64,000 nt of DNA from Deltaproteobacteria bacterium (GTDB taxonomy: Bacteria > Desulfobacterota > Desulfobaccia > Desulfobaccales > 0-14-0-80-60-11), in the NCBI GenBank assembly GCA_021813445.1, contig JAKAKP010000072.1:1-64000 (forward strand), written 5' to 3'. Below, in pieces: positions 24,591 through 62,978 of this stretch (its first letter is position 1; every line of letters starts with the position of its first letter). The notes below the pieces were generated by a model. It was not told the origin of the DNA, did not search any database, and saw only the letters and a program-made list of their open reading frames with translations. The translations under genes were made by a program, and so were the position numbers.

Positions 24591-24684
24591 GAAAAATTGC
24601 CGTTAGATTGCGACTTGATAAAAGGCTTCTTCTGATACTTGACTACCAATTTAATAAGGCTTATTAATTAATTATCATACAAAT

Positions 24685-52641: not shown

Positions 52642-52878
52642 ATGGAAGAAGAAAGCTTCATCGATCCCGGCGCCGTCAAAGAAGCAGAGGCTCTCGCCAG
52701 CCATCCCCTGAAGGTGGAGTTCTTCCGGGGCATCAAGGGCATCGCCGCCTTCTTGGAGCTACACCCGCAGACTACTTTGAGGCTGCTCAAGGCGGGGAGG
52801 ATTCCGGCCAAGAAGGACCAGTCGGGACGCTGGGTGCTGTGCAATCTGGACTACTACCTGAGCCTGAGGAAGCTATGA
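52642..52878 (+). CDS. Helix-turn-helix (excisionase-like) DNA-binding protein
   Basis: 78 residues from ATG 52642. The core 'GIKGIAAFLELHPQTTLRLLKAGRIPAKKDQSGRWVLCNLDYYLS' is the MerR/Xis-like winged helix (HTH_17 type) that reads 'IAxxLxxxxxTxxxxxxxGxIPAxKxGxxW'. Probably a phage regulator or recombination directionality factor; no integrase is in the window. ATGA overlap with the next gene. Confidence 0.8.
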   Translation: MEEESFIDPGAVKEAEALASHPLKVEFFRGIKGIAAFLELHPQTTLRLLKAGRIPAKKDQSGRWVLCNLDYYLSLRKL

Positions 52879-53405
52879 GCGTTGATCCGAAAAATTACGC
52901 CGGGGTCCAGTGGGGGCTGGGACGTCCGTCGGTCATCCTGGTGGGCAGCTATGAGCCTCTGCCTGCTGACAACCTGGTTCTGCTCCAGGAGTTTTACAAG
53001 CGCGGCGTCTATCTCCCGGAGATGGTCCGGGTGGCCCAGGAACTGGCTAAGGAATTCGGGATCAGGAAGTTTTTTTGCGACCCGTCGGAGCCCCGCTTCA
53101 TCGACCGGCTGAAGAAGGAACGCCTGTGGGCGGTTGCGGTCACCGATGAAGAGAACGCCGGGGCCAACCTGATCGCCGAACGCCTGGAAAACGCCAGGGC
53201 CAAGAGGCCTGGCAGCCTGGTGCTGTCCTGCCAGTGCCGGGAACTGATCAAAGAGTTTCAACGGGCGCACCTGCCGGAGTTTAAGCCGGACAAGCCCTAC
53301 CGGGACCGGCCGGTGCCCGTCTATAACTACGCCCTGGCCGCCCTGCGGTTCATGGTCCTGGGATTATCCTACGAGGCCACGCCAAGGGTGCGCTGGCTGG
53401 CATGA
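52875..53405 (+). CDS. Terminase nuclease-domain paralogue lacking catalytic Asp residues
   Basis: 176 residues from ATG 52875, which overlaps the previous stop. It has the layout of the C-terminal RNase H-like nuclease of terminase large subunits: an opening strand 'YAGVQWGLGRPSVILVG', then 'FFCDPSEPRFIDRLKKE', 'LVLSCQCRELIKEFQRAHL', and the end 'VYNYALAALRFMV'. In the normal domain the first strand carries Asp (D-x-G) and the end reads HAxDALRY. Here these are Gln and Ala, while the middle Asp of CDPS is kept. The paralogue at 56881 retains all three. It may be a non-catalytic accessory. Confidence 0.7.
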   Translation: MSVDPKNYAGVQWGLGRPSVILVGSYEPLPADNLVLLQEFYKRGVYLPEMVRVAQELAKEFGIRKFFCDPSEPRFIDRLKKERLWAVAVTDEENAGANLIAERLENARAKRPGSLVLSCQCRELIKEFQRAHLPEFKPDKPYRDRPVPVYNYALAALRFMVLGLSYEATPRVRWLA

Positions 53406-54439: not shown

Positions 54440-55738
54440 ATGAGCTTCGTTGGCTCCATAAACGCCGAAACCCGCCGCTGGCTGGGCAACCAGGGCCATG
54501 CCTTCGATGGCCGGGAGGTCTACGTGGGCTGCTCCGGGGCTTTCACTGTGGAGCAGATTCTCTCCCGGTATGCTCCCAAGGCCAGGATTTGGGGGAATGA
54601 CGTTTCCCTTTACTCCTCGGTCCTGGGGGCATACCTGGCCGGGCAGAACTTCGAACTGAGAATCAAGGAAGAGGCTTTCGAATGGGCGGAATCCTCCCTT
54701 GGCGACGTGGAAGCCAAAGCCGCGACCATCATGGTGCTCCTGGAGGCCCTGAAATACGAGAAGGCAAACAACCTCTTCAAGGCCCGGCATTGGGCCCACT
54801 ACCTGAACAACTTCGAGGGCTTCCACCAGGCCACGGTTGCCAGGCTCCGGGAACGCAAAAAGGAGGTCCGGCTGGAAGCTTACACCAGCCAGGACATCTT
54901 CGACCTTTTGGATGAGATACCCCAGGACGCGGTGGCCGTTGCTTTTCTTCCCACCTATGCCGGTGGCTACGAGCGCATGTTCAAGCGCCTGGAGGAAATC
55001 TTCGACTGGGACCGGCCTCCTTACGGGTTGATCGATGCCGAACGCAAGGCCGCCATCCTGGAGAAGATGAAGACCCGGGACTACCTCTACCTGGACGACC
55101 GGGTGGTGGAGGGCCTGCCCATGGTGGCCGTGGTGCGGAAAGCCCGGATGAAGCCGGTCTATGTCTACTCCAACATGGAGGCCTTACGCCGGGGAGTTTT
55201 GAGGCAACAGCGGCATGCCGAGTTCGTGCCCTTCACCCGTCTGTCAGATGAAGACGTAATCACCAAAGAGTCCCAGCTAACCCTGATCCCCACCAGCAAC
55301 CGGGTGGTGAACTACTATCGGGACGTGTACCTCTCCAAGGGCGTAGGCATCCCGGCAGACGGCGAGGTTCCGATGGTGGCCGCGGTGGACGGCAAGGTCT
55401 TCGGGTTCCTGATCTACTCCCGGATGCAGGGTGGGGGCGACGTGTACCTGCTGGCCGACTTCGTGGTCAACTCGGGGCGCTATCGGCGCCTGGCCAAGCT
55501 CCTGGTTCTGGTGACACAGACCAGGGAAGTACGGAAACTGCTGGAAGAGAAGTTCCTGCTGGAAATCTCCAGGTGTCGCACCATGGTCTTCACCGACAAA
55601 CCGGTGTCCATGAAGTACCGGGGCTTATATAAGCTGGCCCGGCGGGACCCGGCCAAGCTGGTCTACGAAACCGGGATGGGCATCCTGGATTTAAAAGAGG
55701 TGATCCCCTTATGGCTGAAGAAATACGAGAAGCCCTGA
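54440..55738 (+). CDS. Putative phage DNA methyltransferase/antirestriction protein with acetyltransferase-like C-terminus
   Basis: 432 residues. The N-terminal ~250 residues resemble a SAM-dependent adenine methyltransferase: 'REVYVGCSGAFTVEQIL' (motif I-like), 'RIWGNDVSLYSSVLGAYLAG', and 'VAVAFLPTYAGGYERMFKRL' where the catalytic DPPY-type loop would be. The C-terminal ~150 residues ('GEVPMVAAVDGKVFGFLIYSRMQGGGDVYLLADFVV') look like a GNAT fold, as in Mom-type base modification proteins. Phages carry such proteins against restriction. Annotation is from pattern memory and tentative. It overlaps the ParB-like gene by 28 nt. Confidence 0.6.
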   Translation: MSFVGSINAETRRWLGNQGHAFDGREVYVGCSGAFTVEQILSRYAPKARIWGNDVSLYSSVLGAYLAGQNFELRIKEEAFEWAESSLGDVEAKAATIMVLLEALKYEKANNLFKARHWAHYLNNFEGFHQATVARLRERKKEVRLEAYTSQDIFDLLDEIPQDAVAVAFLPTYAGGYERMFKRLEEIFDWDRPPYGLIDAERKAAILEKMKTRDYLYLDDRVVEGLPMVAVVRKARMKPVYVYSNMEALRRGVLRQQRHAEFVPFTRLSDEDVITKESQLTLIPTSNRVVNYYRDVYLSKGVGIPADGEVPMVAAVDGKVFGFLIYSRMQGGGDVYLLADFVVNSGRYRRLAKLLVLVTQTREVRKLLEEKFLLEISRCRTMVFTDKPVSMKYRGLYKLARRDPAKLVYETGMGILDLKEVIPLWLKKYEKP

Positions 55739-56508: not shown

Positions 56509-56884
56509 AGCGTTACTCCCCTACCGGGCTTCCGACGATCCCCAAGGCTTCCTGGGAGCGGCTCTGCTGGCCCAGGACCAGACCCTCTTCCGCCTGGCTG
56601 CCACCTGGCCCCGGGTCAAAAAGGTTCTGCCGCCCCCACCGGGGCTGGGAGAGGAGATCGACCTGGAGAAGATCTGGGAGCAGGTAAGGGTCGATTTCGA
56701 TGAGTGGGCCGAACTGGCCCAGGTGAGCACCCTGGTCGCCATCCGCGGGTTCCAGGTGTTGAAGAAGAACCTGATCATCTTTCCGCCAGATTCATTGTCC
56801 CACCAGGCCGAGGCGGTGCTCAAGAAAGAGGCGGCTGGACGATTTATGACCAAAATGGGCCTGAAAGCTGGAGACTTGAAATGA
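56495..56884 (+). CDS. Phage hypothetical protein (129 aa)
   Basis: No recognised family. Mostly helical: 'YRASDDPQGFLGAALLAQDQTLFRLAATWPRVKKVL' and 'WAELAQVSTLVAIRGFQVLKKNLIIFP'. It overlaps the ParB-like gene by 14 nt and the terminase nuclease gene by 4 nt. The position just upstream of a terminase module would suit a small terminase-associated or head protein, but that is only context. Confidence 0.6.
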   Translation: MGWAEALLPYRASDDPQGFLGAALLAQDQTLFRLAATWPRVKKVLPPPPGLGEEIDLEKIWEQVRVDFDEWAELAQVSTLVAIRGFQVLKKNLIIFPPDSLSHQAEAVLKKEAAGRFMTKMGLKAGDLK

Positions 56885-57375
56885 GCCTGGATTACAACCC
56901 GTCCTTGGAGCTGCACCTCTCGGTAGACCCTGGCTACACCAACCCTTTCGCCGGGCTCTGGATTCAGCCCATTGAGCGAAACGAGCGGGTCATTGTGCTG
57001 AGAGAGTACTACCAGCGCTATCGCACTACCCCGGAGAACGGCAAGGCGATGTTAGCAATTCACCAGGAGGTTGGCTATCAACCTCTTTCCCGAGGCTGGG
57101 GCGACCCGTCTAATCCCGAACGCCTCGCCCTGCTCTCGGAAATCTTCGGGGTGAAGTTCAAGGGACCCAGGTTGCCGGTGGAGGTAGGCCAGGACCTGGT
57201 CCGCCGCTGGTTGAAGGTCCGGCCCGACGGCAGGCCTGGCCTCCTGATCCATCACCGCTGCAAAAACCTGATCCGGGAGTTGACCGGATACCTGAAACAT
57301 GAACCTGGCCAGGGTGAGCACCATGCGGTGGACGCCTTGAGATACTTTTTCGCCGGCTGGGACGGCGCCAATTAA
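56881..57375 (+). CDS. Terminase large-subunit nuclease domain (separate gene)
   Basis: 164 residues from ATG 56881 (the track start at 56704 lies in another gene). RNase H-like terminase nuclease with all catalytic acids: 'LHLSVDPGYTNPFAGLWI' (first Asp), 'WGDPSNPERLALL' (second), and 'GEHHAVDALRYFFAGW' (third, HAVDALRY). Normally it is fused to an ATPase; here the ATPase is encoded 3.2 kb further on (60573..61511). It cuts concatemeric DNA during packaging. Confidence 0.85.
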   Translation: MSLDYNPSLELHLSVDPGYTNPFAGLWIQPIERNERVIVLREYYQRYRTTPENGKAMLAIHQEVGYQPLSRGWGDPSNPERLALLSEIFGVKFKGPRLPVEVGQDLVRRWLKVRPDGRPGLLIHHRCKNLIRELTGYLKHEPGQGEHHAVDALRYFFAGWDGAN

Positions 57376-58491: not shown

Positions 58492-59874
58492 ATGGAAGTC
58501 GAGAAATTAATAACCAAGAGCCCTTTTAGGGACTTGTTCCCCGTTGACCCCAAAATTGTGGATGCTCTCACAGAGGACATGCTCCGCAATGACTATGACC
58601 ATGCTCATCCTATTACTATCTGGAAAGAGCTTAACATTGTGATTGATGGTCATAGCCGGTTAGAGGCAGCTAAGAGGGCCGAGATAAAAAATGTGCCTAC
58701 TATTGGCTACCGGTTCCAGAATGAGAAACAAGCCTTAGAGTATGCCATCCATAATCAGCGGAACCGGCGGAACCTGACGGATGCGGAAATCCTCAGGTGT
58801 ATTGAAGCTCTGGACAGCCGGAAGGAGCGGGGTGGAGACAGGAAAAGCGAAGAGTTCCAGGAAAAATCAAAAGCCTCAAGTGAGGCTATTGATCAACCGG
58901 AATCACCCAATAAGCGCAAAAAGAAGAATAACGAGGATAAATCCGCCCAGAAAACTGCGGCCACAGTGGGCACATCCCGAGCTAAGGTTGAGAAGGCCCG
59001 AACCGTCCTGGAACATGGCGAAGAGGAGGTCAAGGAAGCGGTGAAGGCGGGCACTATGAGCGTCAATAAAGCCTACCAGCTTACCCAGGAAGCCAGGCAG
59101 GCCAGGGATAAAGGCAAGTCGGTTTTCAACCGCACCAATGAGAGCATTGAATGGGCCACCTGGTCCTGGAACCCGGTGACCGGTTGCGAGCACGGCTGTT
59201 CATACTGTTATGCCCGGGACATTGCCAAGCGGTTTTATGATCCCCAGATTGGCTTTAATCCGCATTTTTACCCGGAAAGGCTCAGCGCCCCTCAGAATAC
59301 CCCGCTTCCCAGGTCTGCCTCTCTTAAGGAAAGACTTGTCTTTACGGTTTCCATGGGGGACCTGTTCGGTGAATGGGTGCCCCAGGAGTGGATCGAGGCC
59401 GTAATGGAAGAAGTAAGAGCCGCCCCCCAATGGACCTTCATTTTCCTTACCAAGAACCCGAGGCGGTACCTGGAAATCGATTTCCCCAAGAACGCCTGGG
59501 TGGGGGCCACCGCGGATACTCAACAGAGAGCTGATACTGCCTTAGAGGTATTTACGACGCTGCATTACGGTCTCGCAAAGGTTGAAAGGCCCACGGTGCT
59601 CTTTTTATCCATTGAGCCGATGCGGGAAAAATTAGACCTCTCCGGGACAGGTCAGGACGGGCCGGCTTATTTCCTCTCCGTCGTGGATTGGATCATTATC
59701 GGCGGGCAGAGTGACTCAAGTGGCGAACCGGAAAGGCAGCCGGAATGGGATTGGGTGGAGACCGTGATGAACCAGGCTCGGGAGGCGGACTGCAAGGTCT
59801 ATTTCAAACCGAACCTGAAGGTGCAGCCGAAGGAATATCCCGATGTTGACTTAGAGGGAATGTGCCATGAATAA
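58492..59874 (+). CDS. ParB-N domain fused to a DUF5131 (phage Gp37/Gp68) radical-SAM-like domain
   Basis: 460 residues. Residues 1-~200 are ParB-like: 'ITIWKELNIVIDGHSRLEAAKRAEIKNVPT' (GHxRxxAA) followed by a basic helical linker. Residues ~215-460 are DUF5131: 'NESIEWATWSWNPVTGCEHGCSYCYARDIAKRF' with the CxxxCxxC cluster motif, 'MGDLFGEWVPQEWI', 'TKNPRRYLEIDFPKNAWVGATADTQQRAD', and 'DWIIIGGQSDSSGEP'. DUF5131 proteins look like radical SAM enzymes and are common in phages; the substrate is unknown. The fusion pairs a ParB-like recognition domain with a possible radical enzyme. Confidence 0.85.
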   Translation: MEVEKLITKSPFRDLFPVDPKIVDALTEDMLRNDYDHAHPITIWKELNIVIDGHSRLEAAKRAEIKNVPTIGYRFQNEKQALEYAIHNQRNRRNLTDAEILRCIEALDSRKERGGDRKSEEFQEKSKASSEAIDQPESPNKRKKKNNEDKSAQKTAATVGTSRAKVEKARTVLEHGEEEVKEAVKAGTMSVNKAYQLTQEARQARDKGKSVFNRTNESIEWATWSWNPVTGCEHGCSYCYARDIAKRFYDPQIGFNPHFYPERLSAPQNTPLPRSASLKERLVFTVSMGDLFGEWVPQEWIEAVMEEVRAAPQWTFIFLTKNPRRYLEIDFPKNAWVGATADTQQRADTALEVFTTLHYGLAKVERPTVLFLSIEPMREKLDLSGTGQDGPAYFLSVVDWIIIGGQSDSSGEPERQPEWDWVETVMNQAREADCKVYFKPNLKVQPKEYPDVDLEGMCHE

Positions 59875-60572: not shown

Positions 60573-61511
60573 ATGTCTCTACAACCGGACCATCAAGGCG
60601 AAGGGACTTCCTTGTCCATTGCCAACCCCAAGGCAGCCCTGGCCCTGGTGGAGCATTACCGGAAGCACGGCTTCAAAGATGCTGGCGAGCTTTTGAAATT
60701 CATTCAGGCCTTCTGGGACCTCAGGCTGCCCCGGGCCAAGGTCTGCCCCGAGCACACCCCACCCGCCGAATACGTCATCGCGGCTTTTTTCGAGGAGGTG
60801 CAGAACTGCGTCTGCTGGGCCAACCGGGGCGGCGGCAAGACCTTGAACGGCGCTTTGGTGACCTGGCTGGACTCGGTGTTCAAGCCAGGTTGCGAAACCA
60901 AGATTTTGGGCGGGTCCCTGGAGCAGAGCCAGAAGATGTACAGCCATATCCAAGAGCGGTTCGCCACCTCATCCTTCACCCACCTGGTGGAGAGGGAGAT
61001 GCTCAAGACCTTCACCAAGATGGCGGGTGGCGGCAGCATCCAGATCCTGACCGCCTCCAGCAAGAGTGTCCGGGGACCGCACCCCCAGAAACTCAAGTTG
61101 GACGAGGTCGATGAAATCGACCCCGAGCTGTACGAGGCAGCCCTGTTCATTCCCCAGACCGCCCGGCAGATCCAGGCCAGCATCCAGATTTACTCCACCA
61201 TGCACAAAGCCTATGGCTTGATGAACCGGGTGATCACCGAAGCGGCGGAGAGCGGTTTCCGCATCTTCAAGTGGTGCATCTTTGATGTGATGGAGAAATG
61301 TGTAAACCGGGATTGCGAGGCCTGCGCCCTGTGGGAAGACTGCGGCGGCAGGGCCAGGAACGCCGACGGCTTCATCAAGATAGACGATGCCATTACCAAA
61401 AAACGCATGGCCTCCCGGGAAGCCTGGGAGGCGGAGGCTTTGTGCCTCATGCCCAGCCAGGAGGGACTTATCTATCGGGAGTTTGACCCTTCTATCCATG
61501 TAGTAAGCTGA
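60573..61511 (+). CDS. Terminase large-subunit ATPase domain (separate gene)
   Basis: 312 residues from ATG 60573; the track start lies in the preceding gene. Walker A 'CVCWANRGGGKTLNGALV', Walker B 'KLKLDEVDEIDPELYEAAL', and coupling motif region 'IQIYSTMHKAYG' (motif III). The protein stops at 'YREFDPSIHVVS', where a full-length terminase would continue into the nuclease domain. That part is encoded separately at 56881. It contains an additional four-Cys stretch 'CVNRDCEACALWEDCGG' that may bind zinc or an Fe-S cluster. It drives DNA packaging into capsids. Confidence 0.87.
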   Translation: MSLQPDHQGEGTSLSIANPKAALALVEHYRKHGFKDAGELLKFIQAFWDLRLPRAKVCPEHTPPAEYVIAAFFEEVQNCVCWANRGGGKTLNGALVTWLDSVFKPGCETKILGGSLEQSQKMYSHIQERFATSSFTHLVEREMLKTFTKMAGGGSIQILTASSKSVRGPHPQKLKLDEVDEIDPELYEAALFIPQTARQIQASIQIYSTMHKAYGLMNRVITEAAESGFRIFKWCIFDVMEKCVNRDCEACALWEDCGGRARNADGFIKIDDAITKKRMASREAWEAEALCLMPSQEGLIYREFDPSIHVVS

Positions 61512-61925
61512 TCGCATTTAACACCATTACTTACATCCTATAAGTAACGGTTACGAGAAGCCCTAATAATAGCGGGCAATGGTGCAGTTTGTCCTTATAG
61601 CCTAAGTATTGCTAAAGATTAAGATGATAGTGAGAATGTTGCGAAGGTATAATTAATTGTATTTTGAACCATTTTACTGTCAAGAAAATTTAACCGTGTA
61701 ACTTATTTCACGTATTACAAATAATGATGGAGAGTTGCATAGACTGTGTGAGGGTAAAAATAACTGTCTTTCTCTGTTGTATTCAGGTGCTATGCCTGAA
61801 TAAAAAATAACGTTTAAAAGTAACTACTTAATCGCACTATGCTATTGCATGGCTATTTCATAGTAATATTGCGCACTTAGGCATATAGAGTGCATCTATT
61901 ATTATTGAATCGCAACCAAAACCAA
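61512..61925. other. AT-rich gene-free stretch
   Basis: About 400 nt of markedly lower GC than the neighbours on both sides. No ORF of note on either strand. It contains an ATTCAGG-TGCTATG-CCTGAAT hairpin at about 61782-61804 and ends near an AAAAAGGAGGT stretch. It could be a promoter region for the RNA that follows, a packaging site, or foreign sequence. Confidence 0.5.
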
Positions 61926-61929
61926 ACCA

Positions 61930-62560
61930 AAAAGGAGGTCAACCTATCGAACCAAGGCAAGCCGTCAAAGGCGCCACCAAATAGCTCCCAGGGACGGACC
62001 AGGGGAGTCGCCGGTCCATAAAAAATCTCCCCCGACCCAAAAGTAGAAGGCAGACCTGGGAGCCCCGGAAGCCGGAGCGGGAACCTGGGAGTAGCGACCA
62101 GGGGAAAAAAAGAGCAAGTGGGCGCAGGATACGCCAGCCGTACCGAGGCCCTCCCAGACCCGATGAACTGCTCAAGGTGTGGGTAGGTTGGCAGAACCGG
62201 AAAACTGCACGGTCTTTTGAGTTGACTGGAACTCTGGTTTTTCTTCTTTGACCCACAGAAGAAGGGGCGATCGGAGCCCTGAAATCCGAAGCGAAGCTAA
62301 GCACCGGAGATGAGGCGAAAGCGGGAAGCGGCCTGATTCAAACCGAGGCGTACAGCCGGCCGGGTGGTGGTGAGTGAGACGGGACACCCGGAAGGAAGGC
62401 GAGAGGCGGGCCAATGGACGCAAGTAGCAGCCGGGAAGGGCGAGGCGAAACCGGTAACCTTTGACCATATTGATTTTGGCGCTGAACGGGGGCGGGAGTC
62501 CAACGATTTATTCCTGGCTCCCTTTGAACGCCAAGTTCGATGTCCCAAAGGGAGGAAACG
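61930..62560 (+). ncRNA. Candidate large structured non-coding RNA
   Basis: About 600 nt between phage genes without a credible ORF on the plus strand; the minus-strand ORFs are shadow-like. Paired elements I can draw: GCTCCCAGG (61984) with CCTGGGAGC (62055), closing a GGACC/GGTCC hairpin; TTCTTC/GAAGAA (62241/62258); CCGGGTG/CACCCGG (62359/62384); CTCCCTTTG/CAAAGGGAG (62518/62546) enclosing a GAAC/GTTC hairpin. Purine-rich GGAA and GAAA joiners are frequent. Size and phage context recall large ornate RNAs such as GOLLD or ROOL, though I cannot match it to either. Confidence 0.55.
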
Positions 62561-62563
62561 ACG

Positions 62564-62746
62564 ATGAGGGTTGAGACTAACGAATACGAATTCGGCCATG
62601 GCCGGAAGCCCCGGGGTCATGGTTGCTGGGCTTTCCAAATTGGGGAGGAAACGGTTTTCATCACCGGCACTTTCACCACGGCGAAGAACCTGGCTGTCAA
62701 GAATGCCAGGGCCAAGGGCCTGGGGTTCATCAAGGTTGTTCCATAG
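62564..62746 (+). CDS. Small phage protein (60 aa)
   Basis: From ATG 62564: MRVETNEYEFGHGRKPRGHG then 'CWAFQIGEETVFITGTFTTAKNLAVKNARAKGLGFIKVVP'. A small alpha/beta protein. A GGGAGGAAACGACG site precedes it, lying partly in the last hairpin arm of the upstream candidate RNA. No function known to me. Confidence 0.65.
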   Translation: MRVETNEYEFGHGRKPRGHGCWAFQIGEETVFITGTFTTAKNLAVKNARAKGLGFIKVVP

Positions 62747-62762: not shown

Positions 62763-62978
62763 ATGGATCTGGAGGAAATGCGGGAATATCTGGAAATGAT
62801 CCGGAAGGCCCTGGAATTGATTGAAAACCGGGCCTTTTCCATCATGCAAAACCTGGACGCCCACGGAGCAGGCGTCCCTCAAGAATTTATCGGGCAGTTT
62901 AGAAGAGCCCACGAGGAGATGGAAGAGATGGTAAGCCACCTGGCCGATCTGGCCGGTTTGGCAAAGGAAGAAGAATAA
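62763..62978 (+). CDS. Small helical phage protein (71 aa)
   Basis: Almost entirely predicted helix, acidic, Met-rich: 'MREYLEMIRKALELIENRAFSIMQNLDAHG' and 'FRRAHEEMEEMVSHLADLAGLAKEEE'. Heptad-like spacing suggests a coiled coil or dimer. GGGAGGCGAGACC precedes the ATG. Followed by a strong terminator. Confidence 0.7.
   Translation: MDLEEMREYLEMIRKALELIENRAFSIMQNLDAHGAGVPQEFIGQFRRAHEEMEEMVSHLADLAGLAKEEE

What the first reader, a model, noticed from the sequence alone, without database searches (positions are those of the whole stretch)
61930..62560. Candidate large structured phage RNA of about 600 nt
Seen: no credible ORF, multiple long helices including a 9-bp long-range pairing (61984/62055) and a final 9-bp stem that runs into the next gene's ribosome site. 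Purine-rich joiners are frequent. Phage-borne giant RNAs (GOLLD, ROOL) share size and context; this could be one or a new class. An AT-rich 400-nt leader precedes it.
Basis: partly seen in the sequence, partly recalled or inferred. Interest (0 to 1): 0.7.

Follow-up and report, generated by a model that had tools for sequence, protein, structure and literature searches.

The report
New large structured phage RNA family
A stretch of about 600 bases next to a phage DNA-packaging gene makes no protein but keeps an elaborate folded RNA shape in about 40 related phage loci, so it is very probably a new family of large phage RNA whose job is unknown and can now be tested.

Summary
Comparative evidence does. 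Homologues lie in 39 of 49 loci downstream of a stand-alone terminase ATPase gene, in Deltaproteobacteria genomes and IMG/VR contigs. In a tree-aware covariation test, 16 of 87 proposed base pairs, over ten helices, reach E<0.05. In two tested blocks, 17 of 22 and 10 of 20 pairs carry changes on both sides, against at most 8 and 6 in slid controls. The AT-rich 420-nt leader is conserved without covariation, so it looks like a DNA control region. No Rfam family matches at E<=10 (GOLLD, ROOL and group II introns included), although Rfam finds a true group II intron 4 kb downstream. There is no codon periodicity. The 3' hairpin domain lies about 20-30 nt before the start codon of unrelated genes and recurs alone before further genes. 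Two genomes have the ATPase without the RNA and one has the RNA without the ATPase, so it is not an obligate packaging-motor part. It is a new RNA family of the GOLLD/ROOL kind but a member of neither; function unknown.

The parts
61512..61929 (+). AT-rich leader, conserved as DNA sequence; carries promoter-like motifs (TAGGCA-16-TATTAT at 61878-61905; ATGATA-18-TATAAT at 61624-61653)
   Evidence: nhmmer E down to 1e-130 in about 28 loci; no covariation above the tree-based null; promoter scan 4 found against 1.3 expected, both strands. Promoter role is inference.
61930..62542 (+). structured non-coding RNA, about 610 nt
   Evidence: homologues in 39 of 49 ATPase loci; 16 of 87 proposed pairs covary at E<0.05; no Rfam match; no coding signal
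61984..62063 (+). helix P1 (61984-61992 with 62055-62063), closes the 5' domain
   Evidence: sequence; compensatory changes between lineages, one pair E=0.008
61996..62032 (+). hairpin P2 (61996-62000/62013-62017) with loop pseudoknot PK2 (62002-62007/62027-62032)
   Evidence: P2 pair E=0.03; re-formed with other letters in L106, L086, L102, L069 and L022. PK2 itself is supported by eye only; it got no support in the automatic test, where part of its columns are too gapped.
62084..62102 (+). hairpin P3, CCTGG/CCAGG, with conserved loop like GATAGCAA
   Evidence: one pair E=0.004 in the covariation test, in alignment columns where the window row is shifted; arms CTGG/CCAG, AGGC/GCCT, AGAG/CTCT, CGG/CCG in homologues
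62120..62183 (+). helices P5 (62120-62123/62148-62151) and P6 (62153-62156/62180-62183), then conserved GGTAGG
   Evidence: P5: three pairs E<0.03; P6: one pair E=0.004
62191..62208 (+). hairpin P7 around a conserved ACCGAAA-like loop
   Evidence: pair E=0.0008; all 3 tested pairs have changes on both sides
62236..62265 (+). H-type pseudoknot P9a/P9b
   Evidence: two P9b pairs and one P9a pair E<4e-5; 94-95% of cells paired
62265..62289 (+). H-type pseudoknot P10a (62265-62268/62276-62279) and P10b (TCGGA 62271-62275/TCCGA 62285-62289)
   Evidence: by-eye compensatory sets CGGA/TCCG, CTGG/CCAG, CAGG/CCTG, CACGG/CCGTG; automated support weak because of alignment shifts
62304..62434 (+). core: P11 (62304-62307/62431-62434) enclosing P13 (62360-62365/62386-62391), with conserved GTGGTG..GACGGGA and GGAAGGAAGG
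   Evidence: P13: two pairs E<0.05; conserved unpaired motifs
62470..62542 (+). 3' hairpin domain P14 (62476-62484/62526-62534 outer; about 62488-62498/62511-62521 inner), a portable unit
   Evidence: 93.9% of cells paired against 30-58% when slid, 10 of 20 pairs with changes on both sides; two pairs E<0.005; second copies in L074, L100, L112 and L114
60573..61511 (+). stand-alone terminase large-subunit ATPase half; stop just after ..FDPSIHVVS
   Evidence: PHROG terminase large subunit hits; all relatives >=50% identical stop at the same point, give or take a short tail; relatives <40% run on into a nuclease domain
56872..57375 (+). terminase nuclease half, separate gene
   Evidence: PHROG terminase large subunit E=2e-5; matches the stretch directly after the ATPase match in L120-L123
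62564..62746 (+). 60-aa ORF following the RNA; one of about 20 unrelated groups found at this place

Best explanation
Shown: window 61930-62542 encodes a new family of large (about 600 nt), multi-helix RNA with pseudoknots, carried by prophages and phages of Desulfobacterota-type hosts, sitting between a stand-alone terminase ATPase gene and a variable small gene, on the same strand, behind a conserved AT-rich leader. Inferred mechanism: promoter(s) in the AT-rich leader drive a transcript that folds into a compact multi-domain RNA working mainly as an RNA in trans, as a structural or scaffold RNA of the phage cycle in the manner proposed for GOLLD and ROOL. The portable 3' hairpin domain closes the RNA and sets it off from the ribosome site of whichever gene follows.
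For: RNA-level selection: the top six covarying pairs of 188,000 are canonical in 85-100% of sequences and the best lie in proposed helices; counts on two separately aligned blocks; a covariance model of the P6-P10 block finds homologues left out of its training (L115, L116, L117, L022; E 1e-10 to 1e-18). The AT-rich leader run by the same method is negative. Not coding. Not a gene-specific leader: downstream ORFs fall into about 20 unrelated groups while the RNA stays the same. Modules of the RNA have been exchanged between lineages while helices were kept (read by eye).
Against: Transcription was not observed. The constant spacing of the 3' domain to a start codon, and its extra copies before second genes, fit a cis role as well. 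No intermolecular contacts were tested. RNA-negative relatives (G315, G316) show it is dispensable or replaceable.
Confidence: 0.55

Rival explanations
1. Cis-acting operon leader: a non-gene-specific leader that controls transcription (processive antitermination, as put or EAR do) or translation of the short operon that follows; the 3' hairpin acts on ribosome access.
For: 3' domain about 19-28 nt before the start codon in most loci, whatever the gene; extra copies of the 3' domain alone before second genes in L074, L100, L112 and L114; in L074/L114 the rest of the RNA is gone but the 3' domains stay.
Against: 600 nt with several pseudoknots is far more than known antiterminator leaders need (own knowledge); no terminator-like site beyond chance downstream; the 5' and core domains are kept whatever follows.
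Confidence: 0.3
2. RNA part of the DNA packaging motor, analogous to phi29 pRNA: the ATPase lost its fused nuclease domain and the RNA bridges ATPase and portal.
For: RNA next to a stand-alone packaging ATPase in 39 of 49 loci; for phi29 it is proposed that loss of the nuclease function went with recruitment of pRNA (PMC7672431).
Against: G315 and G316 have the stand-alone ATPase and no detectable RNA; G171 has the RNA and no ATPase relative, at 81% completeness. Much longer than pRNA and no Rfam match to it.
Confidence: 0.12
3. DNA element only (cos/pac site, origin or recombination site) whose hairpins matter as DNA.
For: Next to terminase genes; AT-rich conserved leader without covariation; AT element persists without RNA in L066, L067 and L079.
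Against: Long-range helices, frequent G-U pairs (per-pair table) and crossing pseudoknots with compensatory change fit a folded RNA strand. A DNA role of the AT-rich leader alone remains open.
Confidence: 0.06
4. Group I or group II intron, or half of a trans-spliced intron that split the terminase gene.
For: Terminase is split at the ATPase/nuclease boundary; a group II intron lies nearby at about 66.6-68.8 kb of the contig.
Against: Rfam intron models hit the true intron (L127, L078) but not this RNA at E<=10; the ATPase ORF ends in a stop with varying short tails; the nuclease gene start overlaps the end of the preceding ORF, leaving no room for an intron half.
Confidence: 0.02

Closest known systems
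GOLLD RNA
   Same: Large, structured, phage/prophage-borne, unknown function
   Different: GOLLD is often over 800 nt and near tRNA islands (PMC12286853); no Rfam GOLLD match here at E<=10, no tRNA in the phage part; here next to a split terminase
ROOL RNA
   Same: Similar size (own knowledge), phage/prophage, multiple pseudoknots, unknown function
   Different: No Rfam match at E<=10; ROOL often lies near tRNA islands (PMC12286853)
phi29 prohead/packaging RNA (pRNA)
   Same: Phage RNA encoded together with a packaging ATPase that lacks a fused active nuclease domain
   Different: Far longer; no Rfam match; not strictly linked with the ATPase; a separate terminase nuclease gene exists here
put/EAR type antiterminator leader RNAs
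   Same: Leader position before variable genes
   Different: Far larger; no Rfam match; function untested (comparison from own knowledge)

Membership tests
GOLLD | Match to the curated covariance model | tested here: not met
   cmscan of all Rfam 15 families on 61400-62700 with E<=10 gave only 3 spurious hits; four divergent homologue loci also negative at E<=1 apart from one unrelated weak hit
GOLLD | Phage context near a tRNA array (frequent, not universal) | tested here: not met
   only tRNA in the window is tRNA-Ile at 24684, in the bacterial part
GOLLD | RNA-only homo-oligomeric cage | not testable with these tools
   needs cryo-EM or native gels
ROOL | Match to the curated covariance model | tested here: not met
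ROOL | RNA-only homo-oligomeric cage | not testable with these tools
   needs cryo-EM or native gels
Group II intron | Domain I-IV and domain V models | tested here: not met
   negative; the same models hit the real intron in L127
phi29 pRNA | Match to the pRNA covariance model | tested here: not met
phi29 pRNA | Part of the prohead motor | not testable with these tools
   association with the ATPase is frequent but not obligate
Structured non-coding RNA | Covariation above a phylogenetic null and no coding signal | tested here: met

The most novel reading that the evidence does not exclude
The RNA is an RNA subunit of the packaging apparatus of phages whose large terminase is split into separate ATPase and nuclease proteins: a second, independently evolved and much larger counterpart of phi29 pRNA.
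Probability: 0.1. Interest if true: 0.92.

Novelty: new variant of a known kind. Interest (0 to 1): 0.72.

Why it matters
Large structured bacterial and phage RNAs are rare, and the functions of GOLLD and ROOL remain poorly understood even with structures. This is a further family of that size class, with an alignment of 37 sequences, a partial structure with pseudoknots, and an unusual context (split terminase, exchangeable gene at its 3' end). It gives concrete mutations and partners to test, and it allows the question whether RNA joins packaging motors outside phi29-like phages to be asked directly.

Tried and rejected
Rfam at gathering and E<=10: nothing. Phage GenBank collection by distant blastn: no match. 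Fold energy as evidence: z=0, rejected as support. AT-rich leader as part of the structured RNA: no covariation, its best pairs are mostly non-canonical. Minus-strand frame 62297-62638, open in 32 of 36 homologues over its part inside the RNA: explained by a T-poor plus strand; no codon periodicity and frame-breaking indels. Alternative hairpin GAAC-GCCAA-GTTC (62526-62538), which would exclude part of P14: only weak support, left as a possibility, no switch claimed. Trans-splicing of the split terminase: rejected (see rivals). Obligate link with the ATPase: rejected by whole-genome searches. Contigs L143-L146, L149 and L150, found with a short exact pattern, had no RNA and were chance matches.

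Full report
What was checked. The first 45 kb or so is bacterial chromosome by its gene content (own reading of the ORFs); phage-type genes run from about 49 kb to the contig end (primase, DAM-like methylase, ParB-like and terminase families). The finding lies between a terminase ATPase gene (60573-61511) and a 60-aa ORF (62564-62746).

The AT-rich leader (61512-61929) and the GC- and purine-rich stretch after it are plain in the composition profile. The 9-bp pairing 61984-61992/62055-62063 is exact. The final stem is real. But the minimum free energy of the whole stretch equals that of shuffles, so nothing could be concluded from the one sequence.

Homologues. A blast of the stretch against 59 genomes of relatives found copies in 7 of them, up to three per genome, including a second copy in the window's own genome. 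Searching with the ATPase protein in GTDB genomes and IMG/VR gave about 60 loci, the genomes being Deltaproteobacteria, Syntrophales or Syntrophobacterales MAGs. Of 49 loci with a stand-alone ATPase and at least 1.1 kb downstream, 39 hold the RNA (38 by profile, one of them cut by a contig end, and L085), mostly after the same AT-rich leader. The set still contains some near-duplicates. Ten lack the full RNA; among them L074 and L114 keep only two copies of the 3' domain, and L066, L067 and L079 keep only the AT-rich element. All nine contigs found with an RNA pattern alone, without using the ATPase, also have the ATPase beside the RNA. In a phylum-wide search with an RNA model, 5 of 297 genomes matched, four in the same family and one in another.

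It is RNA, not protein. I wrote a test in the manner of R-scape: G-test with average product correction, null alignments made by replaying the inferred substitutions on the tree at random positions. On 37 sequences and 611 columns the best five pairs were all canonical and in helices. For 87 pairs of a proposed structure read from the alignment, 16 have E<0.05 after correction for 87 tests, in P1, P2, P3, P5, P6, P7, P9a, P9b, P13 and P14. The proposed structure was drawn from the same alignment, so this second figure is less independent than the first. The mosaic nature of the RNA (modules swapped between lineages) also breaks the single-tree assumption of this null; therefore two further tests were made on short blocks. 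In the 3' domain 93.9% of cells pair, against 30-58% for slid partners, with 10 of 20 pairs changed on both sides. In the P7-P10 block 86.9% pair, against 32-53%, with 17 of 22 pairs changed on both sides. The same covariation test on the AT-rich leader is negative, which is the internal control. Codon-position tests on the only widely open frame, on the minus strand, are negative while the ATPase gene is strongly periodic.

Anatomy. From 5' to 3': AGGAGG at 61934; P1 closing a domain that holds hairpin P2 and its loop pseudoknot; hairpin P3; P5; P6 followed by conserved GGTAGG; hairpin P7 with an ACCGAAA-type loop; P8 in most lineages (the window has another form); the H-type pseudoknots P9 and P10; a core P11/P13 with strongly conserved GTGGTG..GACGGGA and GGAAGGAAGG; an optional hairpin; and the 3' hairpin P14. 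P9 and P14 have the strongest statistics. P10 and PK2 are convincing by eye but the automatic alignment is shifted or gapped there, so I count them as likely, not shown. An alternative short hairpin inside the 3' arm of P14 is weak.

The gene after it. The start codon lies mostly 19-28 nt after the 3' domain, yet the ORFs belong to about 20 unrelated groups. In four loci a further copy of the 3' domain stands before a later ORF. The 3' domain therefore behaves as a portable leader unit, and genes at this place are exchanged.

The gene before it. The ATPase ends at the ATPase/nuclease boundary in all close relatives; distant relatives (<40%) have one continuous terminase. A separate nuclease gene lies a few genes upstream in most loci, and in L120-L123 its homologous stretch directly follows the ATPase. 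So the terminase is split. The parallel with phi29, where loss of nuclease function and presence of pRNA go together (PMC7672431), is attractive, but whole-genome searches show ATPase without RNA (G315, G316) and RNA without ATPase (G171, 81% complete).

What it is. A new family of large structured phage RNA. Best mechanism: an RNA acting mainly in trans, transcribed from the AT-rich leader, with the 3' hairpin separating it from the next gene. The first part is shown, the mechanism is inference. The main rival is a cis-acting leader. It fails the tested membership features of GOLLD, ROOL, pRNA and group II introns; it may still work like GOLLD or ROOL, which only biochemistry can tell. I found no description of such an RNA in the papers searched, but the library holds only open-licence papers and no preprints, so an earlier description cannot be excluded.

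Noticed in passing
L127:2611-4814 (contig 66611-68814, just beyond the window): Complete-looking group II intron with reverse transcriptase/maturase (RVT_1, GIIM) and Rfam D1D4-7 and domain V hits; a relative lies about 1.3 kb downstream of the RNA in L078.
   Followed up: partly
window 52872-53405 and 56872-57375: Two separate terminase-nuclease-like genes upstream of the ATPase half: the large terminase is split, and there are two nuclease paralogues.
   Followed up: partly
window 58492-59874: ParB-like N-terminus fused to a DUF5131/radical-SAM-like domain, in the phage region.
   Followed up: no
L066:7164-7494, L067:9918-10199, L079:6327-6602: The AT-rich leader element occurs without the RNA, so it is a separate conserved non-coding element.
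   Followed up: partly
L074:3337-3776, L114:3503-3941, L100:3652-3719, L112:7617-7685: Extra copies of the 3' hairpin domain, each just before a small ORF.
   Followed up: partly
window 62763-62978: 71-aa, probably helical, acidic protein (MDLEEMREYLEMIRKAL..) found shortly after the RNA in many loci; a candidate partner protein.
   Followed up: no
window 54440-55738: Phage DAM-like domain fused to a GNAT-like domain, conserved in the same gene order in most loci.
   Followed up: no
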